Positions 18,913 through 32,350 of a DNA stretch of 32,350 nt are shown piece by piece; within the stretch, counting starts at the first letter, position 1; each line of letters opens with the position of its first letter. The stretch is from NCBI GenBank assembly GCA_016872925.1, contig VGYR01000013.1:1-32350 (forward strand), given 5' to 3'. Under the pieces are notes generated by a model that saw only the letters and a list, made by a program, of their open reading frames with translations, was not told the DNA's origin and did not search any database. A program made the translations under genes and the position numbers. Source of the DNA: Planctomycetota bacterium. GTDB taxonomy: Bacteria > Planctomycetota > Planctomycetia > Pirellulales > UBA1268.

Positions 18913-18998
18913 GGAGGTTTCCAGGGATGCAGGGGGCGGGGAGGGAATCGCGGCCGACGGTTTGCCGGTCCGCTGCGTCCCGTCGATACTCATTCCCG

Positions 18999-20165
18999 AT
19001 GAGTCAGCATCCACCAGGACGCGTCGTCGACCAGGATCTTTCCGGGCGCAGCCTGGGAGGATACCGGCTCGTGCGGCGGCTGGGTAGTGGCGGGATGGCG
19101 GATGTGTATCTCGCGGAGCAGACGTCGCTCGGCCGCCACGTGGCAGTCAAAGTGCTCCGGCCCGACACGGCCCGCCACGCTGCCGCCGTGGAGCGTTTTG
19201 AGCAGGAGGCGCGGGCGGCGGCGGCACTGGTCCATGGCCACATCGTGCAGATCCACGAGGTGGCCTGCATCGACGGGATCCACTTTCTCGCCGAAGAATA
19301 CGTGGCGGGGCCCTCGCTGAAGGCATGGCTGCAGGCCCGCGGTCCGCTCGACGCCTCACAGGCGATCTGCGTGCTGCGGCAGGTGGGCTCGGCCCTGGCC
19401 CGCGCGGCGGAGCAGGGAGTGGTTCACCGCGACATCAAGCCCGAGAACCTCTTGCTCACGCCAGCGGGCGACGTCAAGGTGGCCGACTTCGGCCTGGCCC
19501 GCGTCCTGTCGGAGAATCTCGATCTCACGCAGGAGGGGATGACGCTCGGGACGCCGCTCTACATGAGCCCCGAGCAGGGCGAAGGCCGTGCGGTCGACGC
19601 CCGCAGCGATCTCTACTCGCTGGGCGCCACGCTGCACCATCTGCTCGCAGGACGGCCGCCGTATTCGGCGCCGTCGGCGGTGGCCGTGGTGATGGCGCAC
19701 ATCAAGCAGCCGCCGGTGCCGCTGGCCTCGCGTCGGCCAGACGTGCCGGCGGGGCTGTGCGACATCGTCGATCGCCTGCTAGCGAAGGATCCGGCCGACC
19801 GGTTCGAGTCGCCGCAGGCGCTGCTCGTGGCGGTGGACGAACTGCAGGCGGCGCTCCCTTCCCCTCCGATCGGCACCGCATCGCCGCTGGCCTGGCCGGA
19901 GGACGCCCCCCCCTGGCGCGAGTCGTCGGAGGCCGTGTCGGCGCCCGTTTTTGCCAGCGGGCCCGGTGGCCGTGTGACGAGTTCCCGGCTCCGCGACGCG
20001 ACGCTGCATCTCCGAGCCGTGACCGAGCGGGTCGAGCTCCAGCGCGCGGAGCAGCGTCGGCGGTGGCTGGCAGTCGCCGGCCTGTCGCTCCTGGCTCTCG
20101 CTCTGGGGTTTGCGATCGGCAGGATGCGGTCGCGGCGATCCCGCGTGTTTGGGCCGCAGCGGTAA
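18999..20165 (+). CDS. Membrane-anchored Hanks-type Ser/Thr protein kinase (PknB-like)
   Basis: This 388-aa kinase has a complete catalytic domain at residues 22-285: Gly loop LGSGGMADVYLA (28-39), Lys51 (VAVKVL), Glu70 in helix C, HRDIKPEN (143-150, catalytic Asp145), DFG (163-165), activation segment to GTPLYMSPEQ (184-193) and DLYSLGATLHHLL (about 204-216). After a Pro/Ser-rich linker comes a single hydrophobic helix (LAVAGLSLLALALGFAIG, about 358-375) and a basic tail. No PASTA or other sensor domain follows, so almost the whole protein is on the cytoplasmic side. Planctomycetes typically encode many such kinases. The ATG at 18999 is chosen over upstream codons because the kinase fold begins soon after. 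Substrates are unknown. Confidence 0.93.
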   Translation: MSQHPPGRVVDQDLSGRSLGGYRLVRRLGSGGMADVYLAEQTSLGRHVAVKVLRPDTARHAAAVERFEQEARAAAALVHGHIVQIHEVACIDGIHFLAEEYVAGPSLKAWLQARGPLDASQAICVLRQVGSALARAAEQGVVHRDIKPENLLLTPAGDVKVADFGLARVLSENLDLTQEGMTLGTPLYMSPEQGEGRAVDARSDLYSLGATLHHLLAGRPPYSAPSAVAVVMAHIKQPPVPLASRRPDVPAGLCDIVDRLLAKDPADRFESPQALLVAVDELQAALPSPPIGTASPLAWPEDAPPWRESSEAVSAPVFASGPGGRVTSSRLRDATLHLRAVTERVELQRAEQRRRWLAVAGLSLLALALGFAIGRMRSRRSRVFGPQR

Positions 20166-20246: not shown

Positions 20247-20319
20247 GCCCCCATCGTCTAGTGGCCCAGGACGTCGGGTTCTCAGTCCGAAAACCGGGGT
20301 TCGACTCCCCGTGGGGGTA
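20247..20319 (+). tRNA. tRNA-Glu (anticodon CTC)
   Basis: The cloverleaf is complete. Acceptor GCCCCCA pairs with TGGGGGT, the D arm is GTC...GAC, the anticodon stem is TCGGG/TCCGA with loop TTCTCAG (anticodon CTC at 20281-20283), and the T arm is CGGGG-TTCGACT-CCCCG. Discriminator A is at 20319. The 3' CCA is not encoded. The gene reads GAG codons and is the integration site of the downstream island: the integrase gene ends on the opposite strand inside it, with the integrase stop overlapping the anticodon. Confidence 0.95.
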
Positions 20320-21547
20320 CTTGAACGGTCGCGTCATTCGCAAAAGCGAGTGGCGCGGCCGTTTCGCTTTCGTCGTGCGAGTCGGTGCGGCTCCCTGCGT
20401 GCACTGACTGTGCCGGATTCTGTGCCGCTTTTTGGGCGGCCGCTTTGGCGAAGTGGTCGTCGGTCACCGTGAAGTAGTGCTTCCGGGCCACGTCGGGGCT
20501 GTTGCCGATCCACTCGCACACGACGTGGATCGGGAACTCGTCGGCGAGCTCCGTTTCCCGCGACGCCCGGAGGTTGTGGAACAGCTTCGGCCAGGCCGGG
20601 ATCTTGGCGGCCTCGAGGATCCGTGTGAACTGCGTCCGGAGGTTGGAGTTGGGGCCGCGGGCTCGGCAGATCACATGCACCGTCCCGGGCTCGGCCCGCT
20701 CGAACTGTTCTTCGAGGTAGGGGCGCAGCTCGGGGAACAAGGGGATCGTGCGCGAGGCCCCGCCCTTGAGGTGCTCGGTCTTGGGGCTGCGGACGTGGAT
20801 TCGGTCGTGCTCCCAGTCGATGTCGTTCCAGGTGAGCGCCAGATGCTCCGACGGGCACCGCAGGCCACCGAACCGACTCAGGGCGAAGATCAGCCGCCAT
20901 TCGTTGTCCGGGCAGGCGTCGAGCACTGCCTGCGCCGTCTGGCGCGTCACGAAGAAGTCACGGTCGGAGTTGGCCTGGCTCTCGGCCTTCACGTCGGCGA
21001 ACGGGTTTGCATCGACGAGCTTCGCCCGCAGGGCCGCCTTGAAATACTGCCGTGCCCGCTTGATCTCCCTCGAGACGGTCGCCGGCGAATAGCCGTCGTG
21101 CAGGAGTTTTTCGCGGTAGCCGTCGGCGTCGCCCTCGGAGATGCCGCGCAGCTCGCGCTGCGCCCCGAAATGGTCCGTCAGCAGCCTCCTCGTCTGCTCG
21201 AGGTTTCTGGTGGTGTTCGGTTTGAGTTTGGCGCGGCTCTTGATGTAGCCGTCGAGGAACGCGTCGAGTTTGGCTGGGGCCGTCGTGGCGCTCGTGCGTC
21301 GCGGGGCGAGCTCGGCGCGGGCGAGGCGGTCGTGGAGCCGGTCGTCGATCTCGGCGAGCCAGGCGGCCGTCTCGCGGTCAACAGGTTGGTGCGCCACCTT
21401 CGCGGCCAGGAGCGACTCGACCTTGAGCAGGATCGTCTGGGCGATCCGCTCCGAGACCTTGCCGAGGCGGATCGTGTGACGCTTGCCGGCCGGGCCGACG
21501 AACAGGATGCGCCGGCGGCCGCCGGGGTCATTTCCGATGGTGGCCAT
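20282..21547 (-). CDS. int: Tyrosine recombinase/integrase
   Basis: This 421-aa site-specific recombinase integrates and excises the island. A core-binding SAM-like domain spans about 92-175 (KLDAFLDGYIKSRAKLKPNTTRNLEQT). The catalytic domain follows: Arg230 (SRFGGLRCPSE), a lysine in the beta-hairpin (about 256), His324-x-x-Arg327 (FHNLRASRETEL), Trp346 at the second His/Trp position (CEWIGNS) and nucleophile Tyr358 (ARKHYFTV). The final residues (VPPRGVEPRFSD) are encoded inside the tRNA-Glu gene across attL, with the stop overlapping the anticodon. This is typical for integrases that read through their att site. GAGG lies 5 nt before the ATG. It is the last gene of the alpA-primase operon, 60 bp after the primase. 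Confidence 0.95.
   Translation of the reverse strand: MATIGNDPGGRRRILFVGPAGKRHTIRLGKVSERIAQTILLKVESLLAAKVAHQPVDRETAAWLAEIDDRLHDRLARAELAPRRTSATTAPAKLDAFLDGYIKSRAKLKPNTTRNLEQTRRLLTDHFGAQRELRGISEGDADGYREKLLHDGYSPATVSREIKRARQYFKAALRAKLVDANPFADVKAESQANSDRDFFVTRQTAQAVLDACPDNEWRLIFALSRFGGLRCPSEHLALTWNDIDWEHDRIHVRSPKTEHLKGGASRTIPLFPELRPYLEEQFERAEPGTVHVICRARGPNSNLRTQFTRILEAAKIPAWPKLFHNLRASRETELADEFPIHVVCEWIGNSPDVARKHYFTVTDDHFAKAAAQKAAQNPAQSVHAGSRTDSHDESETAAPLAFANDATVQVPPRGVEPRFSD
20301..20319 (+). repeat. Attachment site attL (tRNA-Glu 3' end)
   Basis: TCGACTCCCCGTGGGGGTA here is the T-loop to discriminator end of tRNA-Glu and recurs exactly at 31581-31599. A 3'-tRNA segment next to a tyrosine integrase is the usual crossover site. 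The tRNA remains intact after integration. Confidence 0.88.
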
Positions 21548-21607
21548 CGCTACCTCGTCCTTGCGGCAGTCGTGTGAATGGGATGAGCAACGGAACAGAT
21601 GGATAGT

Positions 21608-23914
21608 TCATCGGGGCTTCGCTCGCCAAGCCCCCGCCTCGAGATTCTGGTCGGCCGTTGCTCCTGCCAGCACGAATCGGCGCGTCGGCTTACCGGGCGT
21701 GCCGGCGGGAGTCGGAACCCAAGAACCCGCGCCGGCCTTCACCAGCTGGTCGAGCGCGGCTTCGGCCGCGCCGGGGCGTTTGAGCCAGCGGCAGTTTGTC
21801 TGAGCGTCGCGGGCGGTTGTCGCCCCGCCGCGGCGCTCGATCCAGTGAACGAGCCGGTCTCGGTCGCGGCGCAGAGCGCGGTCGATGTCGTTCTCGGCCA
21901 GGATCGCGTAGACGCGTTGCGTTTCATGCTTGAACCACTCGATCAGCCGGATGGCGGCCGCCATCGTGACGGCATCGACCCGGTCGGGATCGGGAACGGC
22001 GGAGACGTTCGCGGCGATCCGCACCTCATGGATCAGCAGAGCGAGCCGGGCCGTGATCTCCTCGAGCTTGCTCCAGGCGGCGGCGAGGTCGCCGATGTGT
22101 TCGGCCGTCTCGGTGTTGTGGGCGTCGTAGAACTCGATCCAGAGCCGCTTGGCGTCCGGGTCGAGGGAGAGCAGGGCGGGGCGCGGCGCACCGGTGTCAT
22201 CGGTGTCCGGCTGCAGGTCGTAGAGGCGGTCGAGCACGCGGTGCAGCTGGTCCCGCGTCAGCGGCGAGATCGAAGTCTCGCGCCACTGTTTCGGGCGCGG
22301 CGGGGGCGATGTGAGCAGGAGCCTCGCTAGCAGCCCGCTCTCGCGGCGCTCCTGCCCGAGCGCCCGCTGCAGGACGGCAGGCTGGATGCCGCCGGTCACG
22401 CAGACGGCCGCGGTGGGCACGTAGATCGACTTCCGGTTGCCCGTGCGCCGGTCAACCGTCACGGGCTCGGCGTTGAAGCTGGAGAGCCAGAAGGCCTCGT
22501 CTGCGCCTTTGCCCTGGGCATAGCGGTCGAGCGAGCCGAGCCAGCCGGCGAGCTCGTCGCGGGTGACGAGGATCCCGCGCTGGTTGTCGGCCAGGATCAC
22601 AGCGAGCGCCTCGACTGTCGTGTCGGAGACGTAGGCCCGCTCAGCGGGCGTAGGGGTCGGCGCGATCGGAGCCGGTCCGGCACTGGTGCTGCGCCGCCAG
22701 AGGGCGACGGCCTTTTCATGCTCGAGCAGTTTAGCGTCGTAGTCCTGCTCCACAGCCCGGTGCGCCTCGAACAGCCGGGATTGCCGCTCGCGGACGTGCT
22801 CGAGCACGGCCTTGAGGGCGGGCGTCTTGCTGGTGCCGCTCTCGCCCACGATCACCGTCCAGAGGATCGCGGGGACGGCGAATCCCGGCTTGAGCTCCAG
22901 GCGGCGGGTGGTGCCGATGGCGGCCGCCACGCAGGCCAGGAGGGGCAGGGCGACGTAGCTGGCGTCGCAGCCGATGGCGGCCTCGGCCTCGGTCACGAAC
23001 GAGGCCAAGGGCTCCGGCAGGGCGTCGGCCGGGAACGGCCGATAGGCCTCCGGCGGGTCGCTCTGCGTCCTCTCTGCGGTGGGCGCTGCGCCCAGGGGCG
23101 TGCGGCGCGTCCTCCAGGCGTTGGCGATCTGGCGCGGGCAGTCCGCGAGTTCGTCGGCCGGGAGGCCGACCGTCTGCATCCGCTCCATGATCGCGGTCGT
23201 GGCGTCGTCGACCGTCCAGCCGCGGGCTGCGAGGTCGCAGGCCACAGTGAACATCGTCTGCCGCCGGCCCGCCGGTAGGACTCGCCCGCTCTCGAGAAAC
23301 TCCCTCGAGAGATCGCCCATGGCAGCACTCGCGAGCGCGGGGCGCGGCGCGAGTTCGTCGAACGAGTAGACGCGGGCCGGGTCAACGTCGAGCAGCTCGG
23401 CTACCGGCTTCGTGTCGTACTTCCAGTTGATGAAGCCCGGAAGTCGCATGATCCTCGGCCAGTCATGGATCGACTGGTCGGAACCGAGCGCCGCGGCGAG
23501 GGCCTTCATGCGGCGCGACCAGGCCGCGGCGTCTTCGGTCGGCGCGTCGAGTCGCCACCAGGCGTGAATGCCGCCGCCACTGTTGAGCACGGCGGTGGGC
23601 ATCGGGAGGCCGGCCGCCTTGATGCGGCTCATGGCATCCTCGTAGAGCGTGCCGCCGTCGAAGTCGGCGAACAGGCATCGGGCGAGGCGCACACCCGCGG
23701 CGTCGGAACAGTTCACTCCGCGGCGCGGATTCGCCCCGAAGTAGATCTGGCGCTGGCGGGCATTGATGCTCGTCAGCCACGACACGACCGCGGGCAGCTC
23801 CGCGAGCGTGGCCCACTTGTTGCCAGGCGGGTTGAGCGGCCGGAACTCGATCACGTCCTCGTCGTCGAAGATCGCGGTCAGGAAGTCGCAGCACTGGTCG
23901 AGGGCCGGTCTCAT
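21608..23914 (-). CDS. Replication protein: AEP-type primase fused to DUF3987 (YfjI-like) ATPase
   Basis: This 768-aa protein probably starts replication of the excised element. The N-terminal primase-like domain (about 1-190) has ADFDGG with Asp84/Asp86, GGGIHAWWRL with His117, and RIMRLPGFINWK (about 154-165), the arrangement of archaeo-eukaryotic primase-like proteins. The middle (about 200-275) is helical and may be a PriCT-like linker. The C-terminal DUF3987 part starts near 295, with Walker A GESGTSKT (357-364) and a conserved LVTRDELAGWLGSLDRYAQGKGADEAFW block. The start at 23914 is fixed by a near-perfect AAGGAGGTG 6-7 nt upstream and a 4-base overlap with the preceding gene; the longer open frame to 24037 is not used. 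Confidence 0.85.
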   Translation of the reverse strand: MRPALDQCCDFLTAIFDDEDVIEFRPLNPPGNKWATLAELPAVVSWLTSINARQRQIYFGANPRRGVNCSDAAGVRLARCLFADFDGGTLYEDAMSRIKAAGLPMPTAVLNSGGGIHAWWRLDAPTEDAAAWSRRMKALAAALGSDQSIHDWPRIMRLPGFINWKYDTKPVAELLDVDPARVYSFDELAPRPALASAAMGDLSREFLESGRVLPAGRRQTMFTVACDLAARGWTVDDATTAIMERMQTVGLPADELADCPRQIANAWRTRRTPLGAAPTAERTQSDPPEAYRPFPADALPEPLASFVTEAEAAIGCDASYVALPLLACVAAAIGTTRRLELKPGFAVPAILWTVIVGESGTSKTPALKAVLEHVRERQSRLFEAHRAVEQDYDAKLLEHEKAVALWRRSTSAGPAPIAPTPTPAERAYVSDTTVEALAVILADNQRGILVTRDELAGWLGSLDRYAQGKGADEAFWLSSFNAEPVTVDRRTGNRKSIYVPTAAVCVTGGIQPAVLQRALGQERRESGLLARLLLTSPPPRPKQWRETSISPLTRDQLHRVLDRLYDLQPDTDDTGAPRPALLSLDPDAKRLWIEFYDAHNTETAEHIGDLAAAWSKLEEITARLALLIHEVRIAANVSAVPDPDRVDAVTMAAAIRLIEWFKHETQRVYAILAENDIDRALRRDRDRLVHWIERRGGATTARDAQTNCRWLKRPGAAEAALDQLVKAGAGSWVPTPAGTPGKPTRRFVLAGATADQNLEAGAWRAKPR

Positions 23915-24114
23915 TCGCCCACCTCCTTGTCCTTGTCGGCGCGGCGCGCGAGCCAGTCTTCGAGCGCCGCGACGGGGTAAAGCGTCACGCGGTCGAGCTT
24001 GACGTGCGGCACGTCGCCGGCCTGGGTCAGGCTCCACAGCTTGCGTTCACTGATGCCGAGCGCGGCTGCGGCCTCGCGGGGCCGCAGAGCGAGCGGGGAC
24101 GGGCGAGGCGTCAT
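23911..24114 (-). CDS. AlpA/excisionase-like helix-turn-helix protein (67 aa)
   Basis: This small DNA-binding protein has the winged-helix pattern of AlpA/Xis-type proteins: PREAAAALGISERKLWSLTQAGDVPHVKLDRVTLYPVAALEDWLARR (about 12-58). It overlaps both its upstream neighbour (another AlpA-like gene) and the primase by 4 bases, so the three are translationally coupled. Likely roles are excision accessory factor or regulator of the primase-int operon; the sequence does not separate them. Confidence 0.85.
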   Translation of the reverse strand: MTPRPSPLALRPREAAAALGISERKLWSLTQAGDVPHVKLDRVTLYPVAALEDWLARRADKDKEVGE

Positions 24115-24332
24115 ACGTCACCTCCCTTCCGGATCGTCCGCACGGGCTTGCAGCCGCCCGCGATCCAGTCGGAGAGTTCGGTACGACGCCACCGGACGGA
24201 GCCACCGAGCCGGATCGGCGCGGGGGCGCGGCCAGACGAGACGAGTCGCCACCAGGTTCTCTTGGCGACACCGCAGAGATGGGCCGCCTCCGCGGCCCGG
24301 ATCAGTTCACTTTCGAACGTCGGTTCTGACAT
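24111..24332 (-). CDS. AlpA-family transcriptional regulator/excisionase (73 aa)
   Basis: The helix-turn-helix region IRAAEAAHLCGVAKRTWWRLVSSGRAPAPIRLGGSVRWRRTELSDWIAGG (about 11-60) matches phage AlpA-type regulators. The chosen ATG at 24332 has GAGGA 6 nt upstream; the open frame continues to 24416 but has no such site. It is the first gene of the alpA-alpA-primase-int operon and lies next to the inverted repeats at 24420-24530, which are therefore good candidates for its binding sites. In P4-like islands AlpA turns on integrase and excision; the role here is by analogy. Confidence 0.85.
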   Translation of the reverse strand: MSEPTFESELIRAAEAAHLCGVAKRTWWRLVSSGRAPAPIRLGGSVRWRRTELSDWIAGGCKPVRTIRKGGDV

Positions 24333-24419
24333 TGGATGTCCTCGGGATGTTCCGCCGCGGCAGCGTCCTGCTGCTCGGCTGAAATCCACGATGACGTATC
24401 CGCCGCCTGAGTCCATGCG

Positions 24420-24530
24420 TCGCGTGACACGGGAAATCGCGTGTCACGCGAGTTCTGCCGGCCGAGGCCTGTAAATGCCCGACTGGACCGTAGCGAGGAC
24501 TTCTCGCGTGACACGGTCATGTCACGCGAG
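24420..24530. promoter_or_regulatory. Two inverted repeats with four TCGCGTGACA half-sites
   Basis: TCGCGTGACACG (24420-24431) is mirrored at 24440-24451, and CTCGCGTGAC (24503-24512) is mirrored at 24521-24530; each pair has an 8-nt spacer. Both left arms share TCGCGTGACACGG. The sites lie 90-200 bp upstream of the alpA operon start and abut the stop of the 424-aa gene. They could be operators for the AlpA-like proteins, excisionase sites, or iterons of a replication origin. Confidence 0.75.
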
Positions 24531-24532
24531 TT

Positions 24533-25807
24533 TCAACGTCGCTTGGGGGTTTTTCGCCTCGCGCGGGACCTCCGCTGGCGGCCGTTTTCAATGGCCTTCT
24601 CGACGCCGGAGAGGGTGAGGTCCGTCCGGCCTTTGAGTTCAGCCTCGTAGAAGTCGAGGATGACGACACGGTCCTCATTGACGCCCTGCCGAGCCTTGAA
24701 TGCTTCCCACTGTGCGAGGAGCTCGTCGTCCGGGTGCCGCCGTGGTTTTCTGTTGGACGGCTTCCGAGGTATTGCAGACGCAGACGCTCCGTCGTCGAGT
24801 TGTGGATCGGCTGCGGCGGTAGTCGCAGGTGCGGGGCCGGAGAAAGGGGTAAGGCGGTCGAATGCGTTACACCAACTCTCAAACGCCGTTGCCCAGTCAT
24901 GTATTGAGCGTGTTGAATCCCTGGCCACAGACATCATTGCCTGGGTTGCATCCCAGAGGGCTCGCACATGGCTTTCGATGGCTGGGGCCATCGAGCCCCA
25001 CAATAGAGCCTCACGCGCGGCGTTGTTTCGCAGCTTGAGGAGAGGGCCGACGGTGGGCTCGCATTCGAGAAGTACGGATCGCTCGCCGTCCGGGCACCAA
25101 GCCACCGAGTTCTTTCCGGCGGGAATGTCGGGCATTGGCGTCGGTGGGATGTGCCGAGCTTTTTCGCAGAGTTCATATGTCGCCCGGGTCGCTTCCATGA
25201 ATCGTGCAATCTGCAGGCGATCGGGAGTCGTGGGTGTGTTCCGTTGCTCAAACGGGCGCAGTTTTTCGATTGCGTCCTGTGCAGCGCGATAGATTGGCGA
25301 CCACTGCTTCTGGTCGAGGTCTGATGGCAAGGCAGCTATCGCCCTGATCTGGTCAACCACGGCGTCGATCCGCTCGATCACAAGCGGCATCGACGTGTTC
25401 CAGGTCTTCGTCTCGTGCACGGCGGCATGATGAAGGCCGCGTAGGCGCGAGGGGTTGATGAGCCGCTCGCGGTCGAGGAGCAAGTTGGCGTAGGCGCGGA
25501 AGGCGATGGGAGCCAGGTTTACGCCCTCGCCGTGGCGCAGGCCCGTCCTGCCGCAAAAGCGGATCGTGTCATTGATGGCGCACTCCATTGCGCCCCGGCA
25601 CGGCCATCGTTCGGCAGCGGCGATCTGGGCTGGGCCGATGCCATCGGCACACGGGCCGTATGGGCCTGGTGAGATGTATTCTCGGAGGGCATCGCTGAGG
25701 ACGACCGTTGCCCGCGGGTCGGGCGAGTCGGCGACAGGGCCGAGGAACCTGTGCAACAGGTTCACGGCTTCCGCTGCGGCGTCCGTGAGAGCGCGGATGG
25801 AGGACAT
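24533..25807 (-). CDS. Hypothetical protein of the island (424 aa)
   Basis: I do not recognise this protein. It is mostly helical with scattered Cys/His/Trp, including CADGIGPAQIAAAERWPCRGAM (about 53-74) and repeated amphipathic helices. The C-terminal 90 residues are basic (RKPSNRKPRRHPDDELLAQWEAFKARQ, ending GRQRRSRARRKTPKRR), suggesting nucleic-acid binding. The ATG at 25807 has no clear ribosome site; a TTG at 25855 would add 16 residues. It lies upstream of the operator-like repeats and the alpA-primase operon on the same strand, so it may belong to the replication/regulation module. No membrane segment is seen. Confidence 0.65.
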   Translation of the reverse strand: MSSIRALTDAAAEAVNLLHRFLGPVADSPDPRATVVLSDALREYISPGPYGPCADGIGPAQIAAAERWPCRGAMECAINDTIRFCGRTGLRHGEGVNLAPIAFRAYANLLLDRERLINPSRLRGLHHAAVHETKTWNTSMPLVIERIDAVVDQIRAIAALPSDLDQKQWSPIYRAAQDAIEKLRPFEQRNTPTTPDRLQIARFMEATRATYELCEKARHIPPTPMPDIPAGKNSVAWCPDGERSVLLECEPTVGPLLKLRNNAAREALLWGSMAPAIESHVRALWDATQAMMSVARDSTRSIHDWATAFESWCNAFDRLTPFSGPAPATTAAADPQLDDGASASAIPRKPSNRKPRRHPDDELLAQWEAFKARQGVNEDRVVILDFYEAELKGRTDLTLSGVEKAIENGRQRRSRARRKTPKRR

Positions 25808-25884
25808 CGTCTTATTGAGGGGGTGCCCCCGATTGTGCCGGGATTGGTTTGCCAATCAATGCCCCAGGACGCCGGGGATCGCAG

Positions 25885-25905
25885 GGGCCGGCAGGATGCC
25901 GGCCC
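25885..25905. repeat. Hairpin GGGCCGGCA-GGA-TGCCGGCCC
   Basis: A perfect 9-bp stem with a GGA loop. Its core CCGGCAGGATGCCGGC is identical to that of the hairpin at 26441-26457, and a degraded copy (CCGGCAGGATGCCG) lies at about 26188-26201. Confidence 0.7.
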
Positions 25906-26162
25906 GGGCCGCAAGGCGGAGAAGGGGCCGAGATGCAAAGGCGGGGCGGGGGCGTGGACGAGCGGAGGCCGCTCGCGGCGAGTGGCCCCTCGCGCAGGCC
26001 GGCGAGCCGCCGCGGCCGGAGCGGAGCTGCTATACGCGAAGCGGCCCGCATGGACGCGGTGTCCGGCGGCGTAGCCGTAACCGTGCACTGAGAAGGGAAT
26101 ACGTTAGGCGCGAATCAACGCTGCGCGAGTATCGCCCCGGCGCATCGGCTCGGGCTCGACAC

Positions 26163-26225
26163 GGCGGCATGGATGCCGCCGCTGAATCCGGCAGGATGCC
26201 GTCTGGCGGCCGAAGGATCGGCCGC
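26163..26225. repeat. Two neighbouring hairpins with GGA-containing loops
   Basis: GGCGGCA-TGGA-TGCCGCC lies at 26163-26180 and GCGGCCGA-AGGA-TCGGCCGC at 26206-26225. A partial GGCAGGATGCC copy lies between them. The shared GGAT loop with differing stems shows paired changes, which suggests selection on structure rather than on sequence. Confidence 0.6.
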
Positions 26226-26438
26226 ACCGATAGCCGCGCCAGCGGCCCACAGCGGCGGGGATGCCCTCGATTCCGCACTCAGGGGAGGGGGAAGCCGGGG
26301 GCGCGGCGCATGCCGCATCGCGGGGGGCGGCGAGGGGGAGGGGGGCGAGTCGATGCCGGATGCGGAGACGAGCCCCCTTCCCCCTGATGAGCCCCCCGCA
26401 GAGACCATCATCGAGGGCTAGCCGCTGCTCAGAACAGT

Positions 26439-26460
26439 AAGCCGGCAGGATGCCGGCTTT
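26439..26460 (-). terminator. Hairpin downstream of the restriction-modification operon
   Basis: AAGCCGGCA-GGA-TGCCGGCTT forms a 9-bp stem about 25 bases after the stop of the last gene of the minus-strand operon. The following minus-strand bases (ACTGTTCT) are only weakly U-rich, so termination is possible but not certain. It is also one of the GGA-loop repeats of this gap. Confidence 0.4.
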
Positions 26461-26484
26461 CCGCTGTGTTTGGAAGCAGCTGAC

Positions 26485-26673
26485 TTACGTCGCGCGGCGG
26501 ATCAGCGCGGGTCGATGAAGCGGTCGCACAGCCGCGGCGTTGGCAACGGCGACATGCGCGCGGTGGTCAACCTGCGCCACGGCCGTTGTCATTAGCCGCG
26601 GTTGAATCTCGGAAACCTTGACCTCAAAGGCAACAGACGGCTTTTGCTGCGACAGGTTCGTTTCGTTTGTCAT
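26485..26673 (-). CDS. Small protein of unknown function (62 aa), end of R-M operon
   Basis: This short protein (MTNETNLSQQKPSVAFEVKVSEIQPRL...) has no recognised domain. The case for a real gene is its 4-base ATGA overlap with the DUF6941 gene and its position as the last frame of a continuous operon. The middle segment FEVKVSEIQP looks like a beta strand; the C-terminus is Ala/His/Arg-rich. Confidence 0.5.
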   Translation of the reverse strand: MTNETNLSQQKPSVAFEVKVSEIQPRLMTTAVAQVDHRAHVAVANAAAVRPLHRPALIRRAT

Positions 26674-27089
26674 TGGATACCCTCCGGGGGTGTGCCGTCG
26701 ACGACCGGAAGTCGCCGCTCAATTAGGGGCGTAATACCATTCCATAACGCCTGTAAAACGTACATCCCCGGGCGAGGGAAGGCAACGTTTTCGACCTTAG
26801 CGATGATTTCGGCCACAACGAGCGGATTGTTTAGCTCGACTGGGCAAGACACTGCCAAGACGGGCTCAGTCTCGTCATTTATTTCGACGATTCTGAAGTC
26901 CACGCTCCCGGCGGATCTGCCATCAGTGATCGCAAGGTAGAACGCCATTCGACCGTGAATAGCCGGAAACTGGTTGGAAAGCAGCCCGGAAAAAGTGCCG
27001 AGAACGGTTCGCTTTCCCGTTGTCGGGTCCGTCCAGATCTCGTCCGCGACCATCAAGGCTAGAGGTACGGGAGTCGTGTGGTCAGTCAT
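26670..27089 (-). CDS. DUF6941-like conserved hypothetical protein
   Basis: This 139-aa protein has the pattern I associate with DUF6941: MVADEIWTDPTTGKRTVLGTFSGL near the start (about 13-36), FPAIHGRMAFYLAITDGRSAG (about 41-61), then beta strands and a closing PRPGMYVLQALWNGITPLIERRLPV (about 106-129). It looks like a small all-beta protein with no catalytic motif. A TTG two codons earlier is possible; the ATG at 27089 is preferred. It begins 24 bp after the nuclease stop and overlaps the small downstream gene. Being inside the operon suggests a role linked to restriction-modification or other defence, which is inference. Confidence 0.7.
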   Translation of the reverse strand: MTDHTTPVPLALMVADEIWTDPTTGKRTVLGTFSGLLSNQFPAIHGRMAFYLAITDGRSAGSVDFRIVEINDETEPVLAVSCPVELNNPLVVAEIIAKVENVAFPRPGMYVLQALWNGITPLIERRLPVVDGTPPEGIQ

Positions 27090-27113
27090 TTGCAATTCTT
27101 CTTGGATGCGTCG

Positions 27114-28013
27114 CTATTCGTCGTCGCTGCTGTCGTCCTCTGACACAGCATCGATGTCTGGAATTGTGGCGTCAGTCGGAGTTTCGTCAGCCCAACGGAT
27201 GTACGTGCGGTTGCGTATGCCGTACTCGCGAACGATCTCCGCGATCACCTGGTCGAGCGTTAGCAATCGATCGCCGCGTGTCGGGTCGGGGCTCTCTGTA
27301 GGCCAGGGCGGCCGGCCGCGTCGGGGGGGTGGTGTGAGCACGTCGAAGAAACCGACGTGCGTGCCGGACGAATCGTTTGTGTCATAGAGTCCGACGAAGA
27401 ACCGCTCGAACTTGGCGGCCGGGTCGCTGGTGTCGGCTCGTCCGGCGCGAGGGCGGAACGTCATCACGGCGTGCGCGAACGACGATTTGTCCGTTGTCCC
27501 GTCGTCGCATGCGTCGATCGGAATGAAGAAGACGCCGATCAAGACGGCATAAGGAAACCGCTCGTGGTGATCCATGGCCTCGGCGCGGAGTTCATGGTCG
27601 TTACGGACCATGTTCTTCGTGTATCGCCCGATGGTCAGCCGGCCCGTAGCTCGATCCTTCTTCGCATCACGGAAGTTCAGGGTCTTGATCGAAACAAGGA
27701 GCTCAAGGCCTGTGTCGGAGGTGGCGTAACGCACGTCGGTCTTTTTGATCTTCTTGTTCGACCCGCTCGCACTGCCGGTTTCGCGGCCCGACCCGTCGGG
27801 CATTGGAAGAATGGAATCGAATCGCCCGGTAGCTCGCAGCTTGGACGCAAGCAGCACGGCAATCGAGTTCGAGAGACGTTCGGAGTAGTTCTTCTTGAGA
27901 TCGCGATCTGCGCCGTCGGCGGGACGCGGGCCGGCATGGCGCAAAGCGTCCTCAAACGTCTGGATAGACGGCGCGGGAGTCGTGGCTTTCGCTTTGGGTT
28001 TCTTCTTCGCCAT
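27114..28013 (-). CDS. Candidate type II restriction endonuclease partner of the C5-methyltransferase
   Basis: This 299-aa protein has no family I can name with certainty. It starts 15 bp after the methyltransferase stop, where a restriction enzyme is expected. A Lys-rich N-terminus is followed by TDVRYATSDTGLELLVSIKTLNFRD (about 92-116): Asp93 followed by a beta-hairpin with Ser-Ile-Lys110 fits a PD-(D/E)xK-like core with Glu104 or Ser108 at the variable site. Then come YTKNMVRNDHELRAEAMDHHERFPYAVLIGVFFIP (about 131-165) and FERFFVGLYDT (about 202-212). The C-terminus is very acidic (DAVSEDDSSDDE). The alternative is an accessory protein of unknown role. The nuclease call rests on position plus one weak motif. 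Confidence 0.6.
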   Translation of the reverse strand: MAKKKPKAKATTPAPSIQTFEDALRHAGPRPADGADRDLKKNYSERLSNSIAVLLASKLRATGRFDSILPMPDGSGRETGSASGSNKKIKKTDVRYATSDTGLELLVSIKTLNFRDAKKDRATGRLTIGRYTKNMVRNDHELRAEAMDHHERFPYAVLIGVFFIPIDACDDGTTDKSSFAHAVMTFRPRAGRADTSDPAAKFERFFVGLYDTNDSSGTHVGFFDVLTPPPRRGRPPWPTESPDPTRGDRLLTLDQVIAEIVREYGIRNRTYIRWADETPTDATIPDIDAVSEDDSSDDE

Positions 28014-28028
28014 GAGCTTAGCTGCGGC

Positions 28029-29234
28029 TCAACGGAGCACTCGGGTCGATGATCGCGCCGTGGTGCGGCGCTTCAACTTTGGTCGGGGCGCGTCGGCTGG
28101 GGCCGCCGCAATCGCTCGCTGAAGATCCCGGTCAAAGGCTGCGGGGCGTTTGAGATTGCCTCGTGAAAGCCGCGACAAAAAGCCCTGGAGGGCGCGGTGG
28201 GAAAGTGGCTTCGTCGGGAACTTCAAGAAGTCTTGGATAGACTTTGCGGGCTTTGAGACCGGCCAAGTGGAAACGTCGACGGTCCATGCGTCGCCGTCGT
28301 CGCTGAATGCGGCGCGCGGCCAGGCACTTCGCCGGTCGAACGGAACCGGTAGCAAGGGCTTCCACGTCGTCGTGGCACTGAGGCGGCTGCCGACCCACTC
28401 CGCGACCGGAACGGACACCGCGTTACCGACCAGCTTCCAGCGGTGGCTGTTGCGAGCGACCTCGGCGGCCGGGAGGGACCAGTCCGGGTCGAAACCTTGG
28501 AGGCGTTCCGCGTCGCGGATGTCCGGCGTCACGAACTGCCCATCGGGCATCCAGATCGCAGGCGGGGACGGGATTCCGATGGTCGAGCCGCCCTTCAGCG
28601 TCGGGACTGCGTCCACAGCCCAACCGAGGCCCCGAAGGCCTTCGGTCCAGAAGAAGCCGCAGGCTACGTCCTTGGCGGCTATGGGATCGCGGGGCTGGCG
28701 GCTGGCCTCGAGCAGCAGTGGGGCGGGCGACTTCTCCTTGGACGCCACGATGAAGACTCGCTCGCGGCGCTGCGGCAAGCCAAAAGCCCGCGTGTCGAGA
28801 ACGCGATACGCCCAGTGATAACCGAGGCGTTCGAGTTCGCTCGTCACATGCCTGATCGCGTTTCCGCGGCCGAGCTGAAGCATGAACGGCACATTTTCAA
28901 GAACCACCCAGGGTACGTCAGACGCACGAAGCAGGCGGAAGACGTGATCGACGAGGCTCGATTGCTGGCCGCGAAGCCCCTTCGTCAGACCGGCCTGAGA
29001 CAGGTCCTGGCAAGGAAAGCCGGCGACGACGAGGTTCACGGCGCGTGGGAGCCGTTTCAGCGTCGTGACATCTTCGTGAACCGGAACCTTCGGAAATCTG
29101 TTCCGGAGAACCGCAACGGCTCCGGGCTCAATCTCGCAGAGCAGCTCGGTGTGGTGGCCGGCGCGAGCCAGGCCGAGTTCAAGACCGCCGATCCCGGCGA
29201 ACAGGCCGGCGACGTGAAGGGATGAGTTTGCCAT
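28029..29234 (-). CDS. DNA (cytosine-5)-methyltransferase
   Basis: This 401-aa enzyme transfers a methyl group from S-adenosylmethionine to C5 of cytosine in a specific site. Motif I GLFAGIGGLELGL (about 10-22), motif IV with catalytic Cys75 (GFPCQDLSQAG), motif VI ENVPF (113-117), motif VIII QRRERVFIVAS (155-165), and motifs IX/X with RWKLVGNAVSVPVAEW (265-280). The target-recognition region (about 190-255) is short, and a further 110-residue C-terminal extension of unknown role ends in a basic tail. The recognition site cannot be read from sequence. The Vsr partner suggests that deamination of 5-methylcytosine is a real cost here. The start lies within the end of vsr (56-bp overlap). Confidence 0.95.
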   Translation of the reverse strand: MANSSLHVAGLFAGIGGLELGLARAGHHTELLCEIEPGAVAVLRNRFPKVPVHEDVTTLKRLPRAVNLVVAGFPCQDLSQAGLTKGLRGQQSSLVDHVFRLLRASDVPWVVLENVPFMLQLGRGNAIRHVTSELERLGYHWAYRVLDTRAFGLPQRRERVFIVASKEKSPAPLLLEASRQPRDPIAAKDVACGFFWTEGLRGLGWAVDAVPTLKGGSTIGIPSPPAIWMPDGQFVTPDIRDAERLQGFDPDWSLPAAEVARNSHRWKLVGNAVSVPVAEWVGSRLSATTTWKPLLPVPFDRRSAWPRAAFSDDGDAWTVDVSTWPVSKPAKSIQDFLKFPTKPLSHRALQGFLSRLSRGNLKRPAAFDRDLQRAIAAAPADAPRPKLKRRTTARSSTRVLR

Positions 29235-29706
29235 GAGCGCCGTCCTTTGTCCTTGCTCTCCGCTCGGACTCGGTGCAGGCCGTGAAGAAGGCGGTCAGCT
29301 TTCTCTCGAGGCGCACGGCGTTCTTCACGTCGCACTCCCACACGGTCAACACCCGATATCCGAGGCGGCGTAACTCCTGCGCCTTCCTGGCGTCGCGGGT
29401 CCGATTGGTCGAAATCTTTTCTTCCCAAAACGTTTTGTTTGCGACCGGGATTCTACCGGCTTCCCCCCCTTTCGTTCTGCGGCAGTTCCGGTGGCCGTGC
29501 CAAAAACAGCCGTGGACGAAAATGGCCCACTTCTTCCGCTGGTTCGAGAGGTCGGGGCGGCCGGGGAGGGAAGCTGCGTTCGCCCGGGAATGGTGGCCCA
29601 GGCGGGTTACGGCGCGGCGCACGGCGATCTCGATGTCGGTGCCGTGGCGGCGCACGGCCTGCATCATTCGGCGGCGCTTGGCGGGGCTCACAATGTCGGC
29701 GCTCAT
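29179..29706 (-). CDS. vsr: Very short patch repair endonuclease
   Basis: This 175-aa nuclease nicks DNA at T:G mismatches made by deamination of 5-methylcytosine. It has the Vsr hallmarks: SPAKRRRMMQAVRRHGTDIEIAVRRAV at the start, catalytic LPGRPDL (Asp52), IFVHGCFWHGH (about 62-72), FWEEKISTNRTRD (about 93-105) and GYRVLTVWECDV (about 116-127). E. coli Vsr is 156 aa; the extra C-terminal residues are Arg-rich and overlap the methyltransferase start by 56 bp. It is first in the operon vsr-dcm-nuclease-DUF6941-small ORF, the reverse of the E. coli dcm-vsr order. Confidence 0.93.
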   Translation of the reverse strand: MSADIVSPAKRRRMMQAVRRHGTDIEIAVRRAVTRLGHHSRANAASLPGRPDLSNQRKKWAIFVHGCFWHGHRNCRRTKGGEAGRIPVANKTFWEEKISTNRTRDARKAQELRRLGYRVLTVWECDVKNAVRLERKLTAFFTACTESERRARTKDGAHGKLIPSRRRPVRRDRRS

Positions 29707-29951
29707 TTGCGTAACCTTGACCCAAGTTTAGGCGAGGGCGGCAGCCCGTCGGCGTCAGCAAAAAGTCGCCTCACATCGCAGTTGCGGCGGTTTTGCAGAC
29801 ATCGGCGATTCAAGCGGCGGCGCACTACTGCGGAACGTGCGCTGTGGCGCGACGTAGGGGATGGTTGCAGACCCCCCCGTAAGCATGGTAAGACGCCACG
29901 GTGCGTGCTGGCCGGAGATCAGCGTTTCTTGATGCTTGGAGGAGCGAGCCG
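29707..29951. other. Divergent intergenic region of the cargo genes
   Basis: 245 bp between the start of vsr (leftward) and the HIRAN-GYF gene (rightward), presumably holding both promoters. A weak candidate for the rightward gene is TTGCAG (29865-29870) with TAAGAC (29889-29894), spacer 18. I see no clear operator. Confidence 0.4.
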
Positions 29952-31382
29952 ATGCCTTCTGTGCCTGGCGGGGTTGCAATCGACGAGATTCCTCGCCCCG
30001 ATCTTTCGCTTACAAGCGTCCGATGGATGACCGAGATTCCAGACTCGGAAGATTCATCCATCGTCGAGGCCGTCGAAATGTTCACGGTCGTAGGAGAGCA
30101 ATACAGGCTGGACAGTGTTGAAGCAGCTGTGAGAGCCATTGAAGAGGAGGTCAGCTTTCTGCCTCCCCGCTTCTGGCTTGTTCCGGATAACAACAACTCT
30201 TTTGATCCGCTAGCAGTAGCCGTGTACGCCGTTTCTGGTGGGAACGGTTATCACGTCGGCTTTCTTCCGAAGGATCAAGCGAGGCATTTTCGCGACAGCA
30301 TGGAGCAGCTCTCGCGCGGTGGGCAGTCGCTGGAAGTTCTGGGCTGCATCACTCAAGGAAAATCGTCCCCGCATCCCAATGGCAGGATTTACCTACCGGT
30401 AGAGTTTGCGGCGCTTTGCGCCAGTGGCTATTCGAGCCAGGAAGAGAACCGCATTTCATGGGTCGAGGATGCCACGCCGGTAACACCTCGCGCCGCCACG
30501 GGTAGTCCCGGCGATGTGTTCACGTTCGAAGAGTTGTGCAAGATCTACTGTTGGTACGCCAGAAAGAGGCGGTGGTTTTGCTTTCCGCATGACTGCGAAG
30601 CTAAAGCTGAAGGGATTCGGTCTGCAGGCATAGGCCTTCCCGTGGCAGATTTCCAGCCATTTATGACGGTGCAGTCAGTTCCAGCGGGGAAGGCGAGCGC
30701 TCCCGCGGAGCGGCAGAGCCGGGCGGAGGCTGCATCGCAGTGGTTTTACGCAAAGAACGGGCGGGAGTACGGGCCGTTTGATGCTGTCGGATTACGGGAC
30801 GCCGCCCGATCAGGCCAGCTGCTGCCAACGGATCAGGTGCGCCGCGGCGATCTCACCCAGTGGGCTTCGGCAAGTCGGGTGAAGGGACTGTTTTCCGAAG
30901 CTGCCGTCGCTCCGAGTGCCAAGCCCGTCGAGTCATCGCTTGAGGCGTTGTTGTTCCAGCAAGATGATCTTCCAACTGAGTGGAGCGTGGGGCCGTTCGA
31001 GGCGTCTGCGCCCCAAATGTTCGAGAAGATAAAGAACGCCAAAATGCAAGGCAGTTATCCACTCCTGTTCAACGGCAGTCGGAAGGGCGGTGTGACGGGG
31101 CTCGTGTTTGAAAATCCTGGGGATGCAAGGCGGTGTTACGACGAGGTGCGTTCTACATTCGGCAAGAATGTGGGCATTGTGGCGCGACTCGGAGATGCAG
31201 CTCGGTTTTCGTACATGCACATGGAAATGCCGCCGCAGCTAAAGCTGCCTCCGACAGAGAACACTGATCTGGTGTTCGTCCACGGCAGAGTGGTTGTTCA
31301 TATTCGAATGGGGGATTGCCAGCCCGAGCCTGTGGTGGAATTCGCCGTAAAAATCGATTCGAGGGCGCGTTCGTTCGGTTAG
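29952..31382 (+). CDS. HIRAN and GYF_2 domain protein, novel architecture
   Basis: This 476-aa protein is the only rightward gene of the island. The N-terminal domain at about 43-130 (FTVVGEQYRLDS...FWLVPDNNNSFDPLAVAVYAVSGGNGYHVGFLPKDQARHF) matches HIRAN, a domain known to bind single-stranded 3' DNA ends in Rad5/HLTF. A Cys/Trp-rich middle (about 188-235, LCKIYCWYARKRRWFCFPHDC) is unassigned. A GYF_2 domain follows at about 263-313 (QWFYAKNGREYGPFDAVGLRDAARSGQLLPTDQVRRGDLTQWASAS). The C-terminal 150 residues form an unknown alpha/beta domain. No nuclease or helicase motif is seen. The start is fixed by GGAGGAG 7 nt before the ATG. Its stop lies about 200 bp inside attR, and the base composition looks less GC-rich than the core. 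Confidence 0.75.
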   Translation: MPSVPGGVAIDEIPRPDLSLTSVRWMTEIPDSEDSSIVEAVEMFTVVGEQYRLDSVEAAVRAIEEEVSFLPPRFWLVPDNNNSFDPLAVAVYAVSGGNGYHVGFLPKDQARHFRDSMEQLSRGGQSLEVLGCITQGKSSPHPNGRIYLPVEFAALCASGYSSQEENRISWVEDATPVTPRAATGSPGDVFTFEELCKIYCWYARKRRWFCFPHDCEAKAEGIRSAGIGLPVADFQPFMTVQSVPAGKASAPAERQSRAEAASQWFYAKNGREYGPFDAVGLRDAARSGQLLPTDQVRRGDLTQWASASRVKGLFSEAAVAPSAKPVESSLEALLFQQDDLPTEWSVGPFEASAPQMFEKIKNAKMQGSYPLLFNGSRKGGVTGLVFENPGDARRCYDEVRSTFGKNVGIVARLGDAARFSYMHMEMPPQLKLPPTENTDLVFVHGRVVVHIRMGDCQPEPVVEFAVKIDSRARSFG

Positions 31383-31939
31383 GAAGTCGGCGCGTCGGGG
31401 CTCCTCTCGGATTGACCGGCGGCGAGGCGTCGAGCGAGAGCCGCGAGGACGGCGATTGAGTAAGGCGGCAGCGACGGCAAAATGGCCAAAAGCTCAATGA
31501 GCCGGTCCGCCGCCGGTGTGCCGGATTCTGTGCCGGGTGCTGGCGGATTTCGCGTCTCGCGGCCAGAATCCGCTGGTTGCTCGACTCCCCGTGGGGGTAT
31601 ATGAACAGCCGTACAGTCCGCAAACGCGGGCGGTGCGGCTGTTTCTTTTTCCGTCTGCTGCCGTTTGCTGCCGTCTGCGTGCATGTGCGACGTCGGATTT
31701 GACGTCGCTTTTTGGAAGTGTTCCTCGGTCACTTGCAGGTAGTGCTTCCGGGCGACTTCCTCGCTGTTGCCGATCCACTCGCAGACCACGTGGATGGGGA
31801 ACGCATTGGCGAGCTCCGTTTCCCGCGACGCCCGGAGGTTGTGGAATAGCCTCGGCCACGAAGGCACCGACGCCTTCGAGAGTATCCGGAGCAGCTGGGT
31901 TCGCAGGTTGGCGTTCTTGGAGCGGTAACGCTGGATGAC
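31379..31939 (-). pseudogene. C-terminal remnant of a second integrase
   Basis: Codons in 31600-31939 match the last third of the island integrase: VIQRYRSKNANLRTQ, LFHNLRASRETELANAFP (HxxR pair), VVCEWIGNSEEVARKHYLQV with the nucleophile Tyr, and PPRGVEQ. The N-terminal two thirds, including the first catalytic Arg, are missing; upstream sequence is unrelated. Reading leftward through attR, the frame runs on into the island and stops at 31379 with an added tail that includes DRLIELLAILPSLPPYSIAV. It is not functional as it stands, and marks an older element in the same att site. Confidence 0.85.
31581..31599 (+). repeat. Attachment site attR
   Basis: TCGACTCCCCGTGGGGGTA is an exact copy of the tRNA-Glu 3' end (20301-20319) without the rest of the tRNA. 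It bounds the island on the right. Followed after two bases by TGAAC, also found just after attL. Confidence 0.88.
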
Positions 31940-32023
31940 GGCGGTCGAAAACGGCGGCGCGGGGACCGTGTCGCGGCGGTCCAAAATGGCGGCGCACAAC
32001 CGTGCAGGTCTCTGGGCGGGGAA

Positions 32024-32045
32024 GATCGGGGCGACAGCCCCGATC
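32024..32045. other. Perfect hairpin near the integrase/IS junction
   Basis: GATCGGGGC-GACA-GCCCCGATC forms a 9-bp stem with a 4-nt loop between the broken integrase and the istB fragment. It has no U-tract on either strand. It may be a relic of a transposon end. Confidence 0.4.
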
Positions 32046-32073
32046 TCCTGCGGAGCAAGGCGAAGCACTCGGG

Positions 32074-32255
32074 CAGTATCTCGACCGCCGCGAGAACATC
32101 CTTCGGCCCATCAGGCACGGGGAAGACGCATCTGGCAACGGCCTTCGGGATGGCCGCCTGCTCCCAGGGGCGCAAGGTCCGGTTCTTCCGGGTCACGGAA
32201 CTCGTCACGCTGCTGCTCGAGGCCAAGGAGGAGCGGCATCTGCTGCGCATGCGTG
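32074..32255 (+). pseudogene. istB: IS21-type istB ATPase fragment, frameshifted and truncated
   Basis: QYLDRRENI (32074-32100) continues, after a frame change at 32101, as FGPSGTGKTHLATAFGMAAC and then QGRKVRFFRVTELVTLLLEAKEERHLLRMR. This is the Walker A region and following helix of IstB, the ATP-dependent helper of IS21-family transposases. After about 32255 the similarity stops, with no Walker B segment (normally ...DLLIVDELG), and the frame ends at 32299. The IstB start and any istA are not visible, so only an internal piece remains. Confidence 0.75.
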
Positions 32256-32350
32256 TGCGCACAGCACAACCACCCCTGGCCGCCGGCGTGACGCCGTAGC
32301 GGAGCCGATCCGGGGCTACTTCCGCGTTCCTCGGCGCCGGGCCCGCTTGG

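What the first reader, a model, noticed from the sequence alone, without database searches (positions are those of the whole stretch)
20247..31599. 11.3-kb integrative island in tRNA-Glu with exact 19-bp att repeats
Seen: complete tRNA-Glu, adjacent tyrosine integrase, and an exact 19-bp copy of the tRNA 3' end at 31581-31599. The module (int, two AlpA-like, AEP primase-DUF3987) lacks structural and transfer genes, so the island is satellite-like. Such elements are little described in planctomycetes.
Basis: partly seen in the sequence, partly recalled or inferred. Interest (0 to 1): 0.68.

Follow-up and report, generated by a model that had tools for sequence, protein, structure and literature searches.

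The report
Mobile tRNA island carrying restriction genes
An 11-kb piece of mobile DNA sits in a glutamate-tRNA gene of an uncultured bacterium, brings a restriction-modification system, and copies itself with an enzyme whose front half looks like that of a group of viruses.

Summary
A 19-bp tRNA-Glu 3' end recurs exactly at 20301 and 31581 and, with one mismatch allowed, nowhere else in the 4.5-Mb genome. Joining the two flanks gives a sequence that lies uninterrupted in a congener (G013), so 20320-31599 is an insertion. Another congener (G007) carries the island's left end at 323/332 nt although the neighbouring kinase is only 67% identical in protein: recent transfer. (1) The right att abuts an older integrase fossil, itself broken by an IS21-type element. 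(2) The cargo is a restriction-modification cassette (C5 methyltransferase, Vsr, probable endonuclease), found again together in a Gemmatimonadaceae genome. (3) The replication protein is a mosaic: its DUF3987 helicase half matches other islands of the order, its AEP primase half is 57-64% identical to 39 viral contigs and at most about 47% to any cellular copy seen. The gene set (integrase, two AlpA-type regulators, DUF3987 primase) is that of the PICMI satellite model, but PICMI's hallmark fis site is not met. A phage-satellite life is likely, not shown. A palindrome-rich noncoding repeat beside the cassette flanks unrelated defence genes elsewhere. New variant of a known kind.

The parts
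18927..20165 (+). Ser/Thr protein kinase, chromosomal left flank
   Evidence: Pfam Pkinase E=5e-44; followed by tRNA-Glu(CTC) in 12 of the 14 relatives' loci scanned, the other two ending too soon
20247..20320 (+). tRNA-Glu (CTC), integration target
   Evidence: ARAGORN; Rfam
20301..20319 (+). left att, 19 bp, the tRNA 3' end
20282..21547 (-). tyrosine integrase, 421 aa; its last codons run through att antisense to the tRNA
   Evidence: Pfam Phage_integrase 2.9e-11, PHROG integrase 2.1e-34
21608..23914 (-). primase-helicase, 768 aa: AEP (RepB_primase) half about 23060-23914, DUF3987 half about 21608-23059
   Evidence: RepB_primase 9.5e-08, DUF3987 1.1e-71; halves have different relatives
23911..24114 (-). 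AlpA/Xis-like HTH protein 2, 4-bp overlap with the primase start
   Evidence: HTH_17 2.7e-10; phrog_66 excisionase and regulator
24111..24332 (-). AlpA/Xis-like HTH protein 1
   Evidence: HTH_17 3.7e-10, Phage_AlpA 4.5e-4, just under its cut-off
24533..25807 (-). unknown protein, 424 aa
   Evidence: no family; 24% over its first 160 aa to an ORF beside AlpA and int in G008:C137 (E=4.7e-10)
25885..26470 (+). palindrome-rich noncoding repeat; conserved core 26162-26470, left palindrome at 25890 (full copies elsewhere about 650 bp)
26670..27095 (-). DUF6941 protein, cargo
   Evidence: Pfam 2.3e-15
27114..28013 (-). probable type II restriction endonuclease, 299 aa
   Evidence: weak PADLOC REase_II (E=0.0069); relatives abut N-6 methylase genes on three plasmids and lie with MTase and Vsr in a Gemmatimonadaceae MAG
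28029..29234 (-). C5-cytosine DNA methyltransferase
   Evidence: PADLOC MTase_II 3e-136; Pfam DNA_methylase 9.4e-47
29179..29706 (-). Vsr mismatch endonuclease, overlapping the methyltransferase start
   Evidence: NCBIfam TIGR00632 6.1e-36
29901..31382 (+). GYF_2 protein with a sub-threshold HIRAN match, cargo
   Evidence: Pfam GYF_2 1.1e-11; HIRAN 0.0082, below cut-off
31581..31599 (+). right att, 19 bp
31600..31935 (-). older integrase C-terminal fossil and its tRNA-side terminator-like stretch, outside the island
   Evidence: 61% aa to the island integrase; shared with G013 at 261/327 nt directly after its tRNA-Glu
31936..32350 (.). IS21-type insertion element, cut by the contig end
   Evidence: multi-copy pieces in congeners, the first 110 bp mostly at 94-96%; IstB_IS21 2.1e-13 at 32081-32254 +

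Best explanation
An 11,280-bp integrative mobile island. Its tyrosine integrase inserted a circular form at the 3' end of tRNA-Glu(CTC), restoring the tRNA and leaving 19-bp direct repeats (shown by sequence and by an uninterrupted site in a congener). Most likely working, inferred: one or both AlpA-type proteins act as excisionase and switch; the excised circle is copied by the AEP-DUF3987 primase-helicase; it spreads by hitching a ride on a phage, since it has no transfer or virion genes; and it pays its host with a type II restriction-modification cassette (C5 methyltransferase, Vsr, probable endonuclease). It entered a tRNA that already carried the fossil of an earlier island, at a site used repeatedly in this order of bacteria. 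Its replication protein is a mosaic: the helicase half belongs to the islands, the primase half to a phage-type AEP-DnaB lineage, which points to that phage group as partner or gene source.
For: Exact att pair, unique in the genome. Flanks joined at one att align to an uninterrupted G013 locus (375 of 443 aligned columns; right flank alone 261/327). G007: same tRNA, island left end 323/332 nt against 67% aa in the adjacent kinase. Site reuse: integrase or integrase C-terminus after this tRNA in 8 of 12 relatives' loci, plus G008 on a second contig; tRNA-to-next-conserved-gene distance from 0.9 kb (G020) to about 24 kb (G012). Integrase and DUF3987 matches lie within 1.6 kb of each other at 16 places in 14 other genomes (listed rows; 34 of 116 genomes have any primase match). 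Cassette; same three genes in a Gemmatimonadaceae MAG (58%, 53%, 43%). Mosaic: AEP half 57-64% to 39 viral contigs; within 392 phylum genomes only the window's own genome at E<=1e-25; DUF3987 half best 56%, to the G031 island, and nothing in viral contigs; sister islands carry Toprim, Zn-ribbon or Prim-Pol N-termini instead. Tree: window with the viral rows, 95/90.
Against: No reads, no circle, no helper: terminase family in the own genome only E=3.7e-4. The endonuclease is assigned by context and a weak match; its model was poor (pLDDT 54) and phmmer found no solved relative. The AEP is not exclusive to viruses: G054:C99 has an int-AlpA island with a phage-type AEP-DnaB protein, 46-47% to the window's AEP. 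In the tree the window row is long-branched, unresolved at the base of the viral rows, and a cellular pair (L269, L154) also falls inside, so direction of transfer is open. The viral scan uses exact octapeptides of the query and favours close kin. Only up to 17 kb of each viral contig was read; no virion gene was seen there.
Confidence: 0.62

Rival explanations
1. A mobilisable or self-replicating integrative element that moves by conjugative help, transformation or vesicles, not by phage; the AEP-DUF3987 protein only serves plasmid-like replication.
For: AEP primases with DUF3987 helicase domains are described for diverse integrated elements (PMC5862659, passages read). No packaging or capsid-remodelling gene was recognised. 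No helper found.
Against: No relaxase among the 10 proteins. The AEP half is nearer to phage proteins than to any cellular protein seen. Same tRNA used by a phage contig.
Confidence: 0.28
2. A decayed, no longer mobile island: site-specific insertion in the past, now held for its restriction-modification genes.
For: Many related sites hold only integrase C-terminal fossils (G015, G018, G012, G013, G021; G021's contig ends early). G018 has a fossil with a piece of the same endonuclease gene next to the same repeat.
Against: The integrase, both AlpA genes and the primase-helicase are full-length and open; the att pair is exact; near-identical left end in another species.
Confidence: 0.2
3. Defective prophage rather than satellite.
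For: Phage-type AEP domain; integrase; AlpA.
Against: No head, tail, portal, lysis or large-terminase gene.
Confidence: 0.05
4. Chance repeat: the 19-bp copy at 31581 is unrelated to the integrase and the region is ordinary chromosome.
For: None found.
Against: Unique exact pair and the uninterrupted G013 site.
Confidence: 0.01

Closest known systems
PICMI, phage-inducible chromosomal minimalist islands (PMC10803314)
   Same: Integrase PF00589 + AlpA-type PF12728 + DUF3987 primase together, no capsid genes; AlpA next to the primase; site-specific insertion
   Different: tRNA-Glu instead of fis; 11.3 kb against an average of 6.7 kb in Vibrionaceae; two AlpA genes; restriction-modification cargo; phage-type AEP half; no helper known
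AEP-encoding integrated elements (PrimPol-PV1 supergroup, PMC5862659)
   Same: AEP fused to a putative DUF3987 helicase; integrase; many inserted in tRNA genes with direct repeats
   Different: The main text has no occurrence of 'Planctomycet'; assignment to one of its families was not tested here
P4-like satellites and PLE (recalled; PMC9122126 and PMC7145576 seen as search listings with abstracts' beginnings only)
   Same: Small integrated element with own replication start; defence cargo hotspot (P4)
   Different: No capsid-sizing or other P4/PLE gene recognised; not tested by their own models
Restriction-modification cluster of Gemmatimonadaceae MAG contig CANGXD010000039.1 (L175)
   Same: Endonuclease 58%, C5 methyltransferase 53%, Vsr 43% in one cluster
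   Different: There the endonuclease and methyltransferase genes converge, with another ORF between them and large ORFs beside them

Membership tests
PICMI | Integrase (PF00589) | tested here: met
   E=2.9e-11, above cut-off
PICMI | AlpA (PF05930 or PF12728) | tested here: met
   two HTH_17 proteins, 40.3 and 40.8 bits, cut-off 27
PICMI | Primase with DUF3987 (PF13148) | tested here: met
   242.4 bits
PICMI | Integration next to fis, called a hallmark (PMC10803314 section 10) | tested here: not met
   att is in tRNA-Glu
PICMI | Induced and packaged by a helper phage | not testable with these tools
   needs phage and host; no helper found in the genome
Integrative mobile island | Site-specific insertion with att repeats and an empty counterpart | tested here: met
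Integrative mobile island | Excision to a circle | not testable with these tools
   no reads
ICE/IME | Relaxase | tested here: not met
   none in 10 proteins, four libraries
Prophage | Virion and packaging genes | tested here: not met
   none convincing; one weak terminase-small hit of an HTH protein, E=4.9e-4
Type II restriction-modification | DNA methyltransferase | tested here: met
   PADLOC MTase_II 3e-136
Type II restriction-modification | Cognate endonuclease | tested here: inconclusive
   weak model match; gene neighbourhood in plasmids and a Gemmatimonadaceae MAG; one plasmid relative without an annotated methylase

The most novel reading that the evidence does not exclude
Islands of this order are modular satellites that swap their primase domain with the temperate phages they ride (here a phage AEP grafted onto an island DUF3987 helicase), so the primase domain names the helper; and they swap their restriction cassettes at a conserved about 650-bp palindrome-rich noncoding sequence that lies between island core and defence cargo in the same orientation in unrelated cassettes.
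Probability: 0.2. Interest if true: 0.78.

Novelty: new variant of a known kind. Interest (0 to 1): 0.5.

Why it matters
It extends the int-AlpA-DUF3987 satellite plan, best known from Vibrionaceae, to what is probably a planctomycete lineage, where no satellite was found in the literature searched. It shows one tRNA gene taken again and again across an order, with fossils, a near-identical left end in another species and an empty counterpart. The mosaic replication protein offers a sequence-based guess at the partner phage, which is usually the missing piece for satellites of uncultured bacteria, and the repeat beside unrelated restriction systems offers a testable idea of how defence cargo is exchanged.

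Tried and rejected
Helper prophage in the same genome: PHROG large terminase over 22 congeneric genomes gave one clear match (G013:C157, E=4e-36); the own genome only E=3.7e-4; left open because the genome is 93% complete in 503 contigs. Endonuclease structure: AlphaFold on two sequences gave mean pLDDT 54, so no fold search was made; phmmer against solved structures, 0 matches. Endonuclease in viral contigs: 48 pattern matches, none a relative. Unknown 424-aa protein in viral contigs: none. Noncoding repeat as an RNA: Rfam nothing near a threshold, fold z-score -7.7 on the + strand and -5.1 on the - strand, but only 4 of 91 predicted pairs have a change on both sides and the covariation term is +1.16, i.e. 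unfavourable, so an RNA structure is not supported. The repeat in plasmids and phages: no match. AEP-type phages' own att: 18-mers of the tRNAs held (18 kinds by anticodon, not the full set) matched none of the 39 viral loci, only L265 and L266. Relation of phage L266 to the AEP phages: only its integrase is alike, about 27-29%, in 14 of 39 loci, so L266 is not shown to belong to them. Right chromosomal flank of the own genome: found on another contig (C38), not joined to the window. The idea that int2 is a second intact element was dropped: it is cut off by an IS21-type element and shared as a fossil with G013.
Full report
Observation. The window is one entire contig (G000:C13) of a 4.5-Mb, 503-contig genome. 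A complete tRNA-Glu(CTC) lies at 20247-20320. Its last 19 bases before position 20320 recur exactly at 31581-31599. In the whole genome, with up to one mismatch, there are two forward copies, no reverse copy and none of the reversed control.

Insertion shown by comparison. The kinase gene before the tRNA has orthologues followed by the same tRNA-Glu(CTC) in 12 of 14 relatives' loci scanned; the other two end too soon. In G013 the tRNA is followed at once by the sequence that in the window lies right of the second att: with the island taken out, window flanks and G013 share 375 of 443 aligned columns, and the right flank alone 261 of 327. In G007 the same tRNA is followed by the island's left end, 323 of 332 nt identical, although the kinase beside it is only 67% identical in protein; that contig ends about 1 kb on and no relative of the primase was found in that genome, so how much of the island G007 has is unknown. 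The G007 result points to recent horizontal transfer, the G013 result to an unoccupied site.

Beyond the right att. Homology between the two ends runs on past the att: 31600-31935 is the C-terminal end of a second integrase, 61% identical to the first, also present after the tRNA in G013. It is an older fossil. At 31936 an IS21-type element begins (multi-copy; IstB), and the contig breaks there. Integrase or an integrase C-terminus follows this tRNA in 8 of 12 relatives' loci (not in G020, G024, G008's first contig, and only a 25% integrase further on in G011), in G008 on a second contig, and a full or near-full integrase sits between tRNA-Glu(CTC) and this kinase also in G054, G059, G079, G105 and G036. 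The next conserved chromosomal gene lies 0.9 kb from the tRNA in G020 and about 24 kb away in G012. The site is a hotspot.

Genes. All on the minus strand unless noted: integrase; AEP-DUF3987 primase-helicase; two AlpA-type HTH proteins, each overlapping the next gene by 4 bp; a 424-aa unknown; DUF6941; a 299-aa probable endonuclease; a C5 methyltransferase; Vsr; and, on plus, a GYF_2 protein with a sub-threshold HIRAN match. The endonuclease call rests on context. Relatives on three plasmids start at the 3' end of N-6 methylase genes; a fourth has no annotated methylase beside it, and two more plasmid hits were not opened. A Gemmatimonadaceae MAG has endonuclease (58%), methyltransferase (53%) and Vsr (43%) together. 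In 116 relatives the endonuclease was found in 3 genomes including the own one.

The mosaic replication protein. Residues 4-299 match 39 IMG/VR contigs at 57-64% (43 stretches matched a pattern, 39 were relatives); contigs up to 49 kb. The two such proteins scanned go on as DnaB helicase, and the stretches scanned hold a sliding clamp, RusA, a Sak4-like protein, ParB-like proteins and in L260 an integrase. In 392 genomes of the phylum only the own genome has a match at E<=1e-25 (two further own copies at 42% and 37%). Among 116 nearer relatives the best cellular AEP is in G054:C99, 46-47%, in an island with integrase, AlpA and a phage-type AEP-DnaB protein. The DUF3987 half behaves in the opposite way: best 56% in the G031 island, no viral contig when searched alone. 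In sister islands the same DUF3987 domain has other N-termini: Toprim (G031, G022, G054, G013), Zn_Ribbon_Prim (G027), Prim-Pol (G100), or none recognised (G018, G087) (several of the Toprim matches are below cut-off). In the tree the window's AEP joins the viral rows with 95/90, but on a long branch at an unresolved base, and one cellular pair also falls inside (first tree 91/88; L105 and L106 and duplicate sequences were left out of the second tree, their loci L269 and L270 taking their place). So the primase domain has been exchanged; the direction is not settled.

A phage at the same site. An exact scan of IMG/VR for the 19-mer gave two contigs. One is a tRNA array on a 184-kb contig. The other, a 53-kb contig (L266), has the 19-mer, part of a longer match to the tRNA-Glu 3' end, 60 bp from an integrase gene and without a tRNA: most simply an attP. 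Its host is unknown and it is not shown to belong to the AEP phages.

A repeat beside the cassette. The noncoding stretch 26162-26470 has relatives in 8 of 116 genomes (at most six candidates scored per genome): 12 places, window included, counting the two split or partial G045 copies once each. Full copies are about 650 bp with sharp ends. It contains a palindrome GGCA(N1-2)GATGCC up to five times; the window has it at 25890, 26166, 26190 and 26444 in this region, against 4 in 137,635 bp of other relatives' DNA. In 10 of the 12 places the neighbouring gene is a restriction or defence gene: type IIG enzymes (G008:C2, G012:C100, G045:C164, G001:C413, G018:C4, G008:C137), GmrSD-type (G000:C8 and, by a 599-aa ORF in a stretch 95% identical in DNA, G045:C131), the window's cassette, and a fragment of the same endonuclease in G018:C9; in two (G079:C42, G010:C221) it is a protein of no known family. 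Some places share the same cassette, so the independent number is smaller, and no random-locus control was made. Where an integrase is on the same contig within about 10 kb (window, G000:C8, G008:C137, G045:C131) the order integrase, repeat, defence gene and the orientation of integrase to repeat agree, except that in G008:C137 the defence genes stand on the other side of the repeat. It may be a recombination landmark, a cis-acting replication or packaging site, or a small transposable element; covariation gives no support to an RNA.

Mechanism. Shown: site-specific insertion with att repeats, open recombination and replication genes, recent transfer of at least the left end, restriction-modification cargo. 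Inferred: AlpA-driven excision (by analogy to PICMI115, where int, alpA and prim were needed, PMC10803314), replication of the circle by the primase-helicase, spread by a phage. The phage step is the weakest; the alternative is help from a conjugative element or uptake of free DNA.

Known kin. The gene model int + AlpA + DUF3987 primase is that of PICMI, but PICMI was said never to occur without fis; here the site is tRNA-Glu, so it is not filed as PICMI. The same study reports 135 PICMI-like elements in complete genomes, 67 of them in Vibrionaceae; the rest were not examined here. I rate it a new variant of a known kind.

Noticed in passing
window 25885-26470; relatives in L208-L216, L137, L138: A palindrome-rich noncoding repeat (about 650 bp in full copies) next to unrelated restriction or defence genes at 10 of 12 places in 8 genomes; function unknown, not in Rfam, plasmids or phages searched.
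   Followed up: partly
L266:9952-10963: A 53-kb IMG/VR contig has an integrase 60 bp from an exact copy of the tRNA-Glu(CTC) 3' end without a tRNA: a probable phage attP for the same site.
   Followed up: partly
L268:862-5831: G054:C99 carries an int-AlpA island whose primase is a phage-type AEP-DnaB protein, 41% over 590 aa to phage L234.
   Followed up: partly
L137:1363-13656: The own genome has a second integrase-AlpA island on contig C8 with the same repeat and a GmrSD-type protein.
   Followed up: partly
L216 (G018:C9:28500-38500): At the same tRNA-Glu, G018 has a decayed relative: integrase C-terminus, the repeat, and a 3' piece of the endonuclease gene at 72-80% aa.
   Followed up: yes
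L175:2337-13737: Gemmatimonadaceae MAG: beside the related restriction-modification genes stand a 2040-aa helicase-like ORF and an Mrr-like ORF (names by eye, no search), perhaps a larger defence cluster.
   Followed up: no
L265: A 7.8-kb IMG/VR contig has an integrase (49%) and AlpA (46%) next to tRNA-Val: probably a similar island filed as a virus.
   Followed up: no
window 294-388: Tandem array, 33-base unit, 2.9 copies, G+C-rich and partly palindromic.
   Followed up: no
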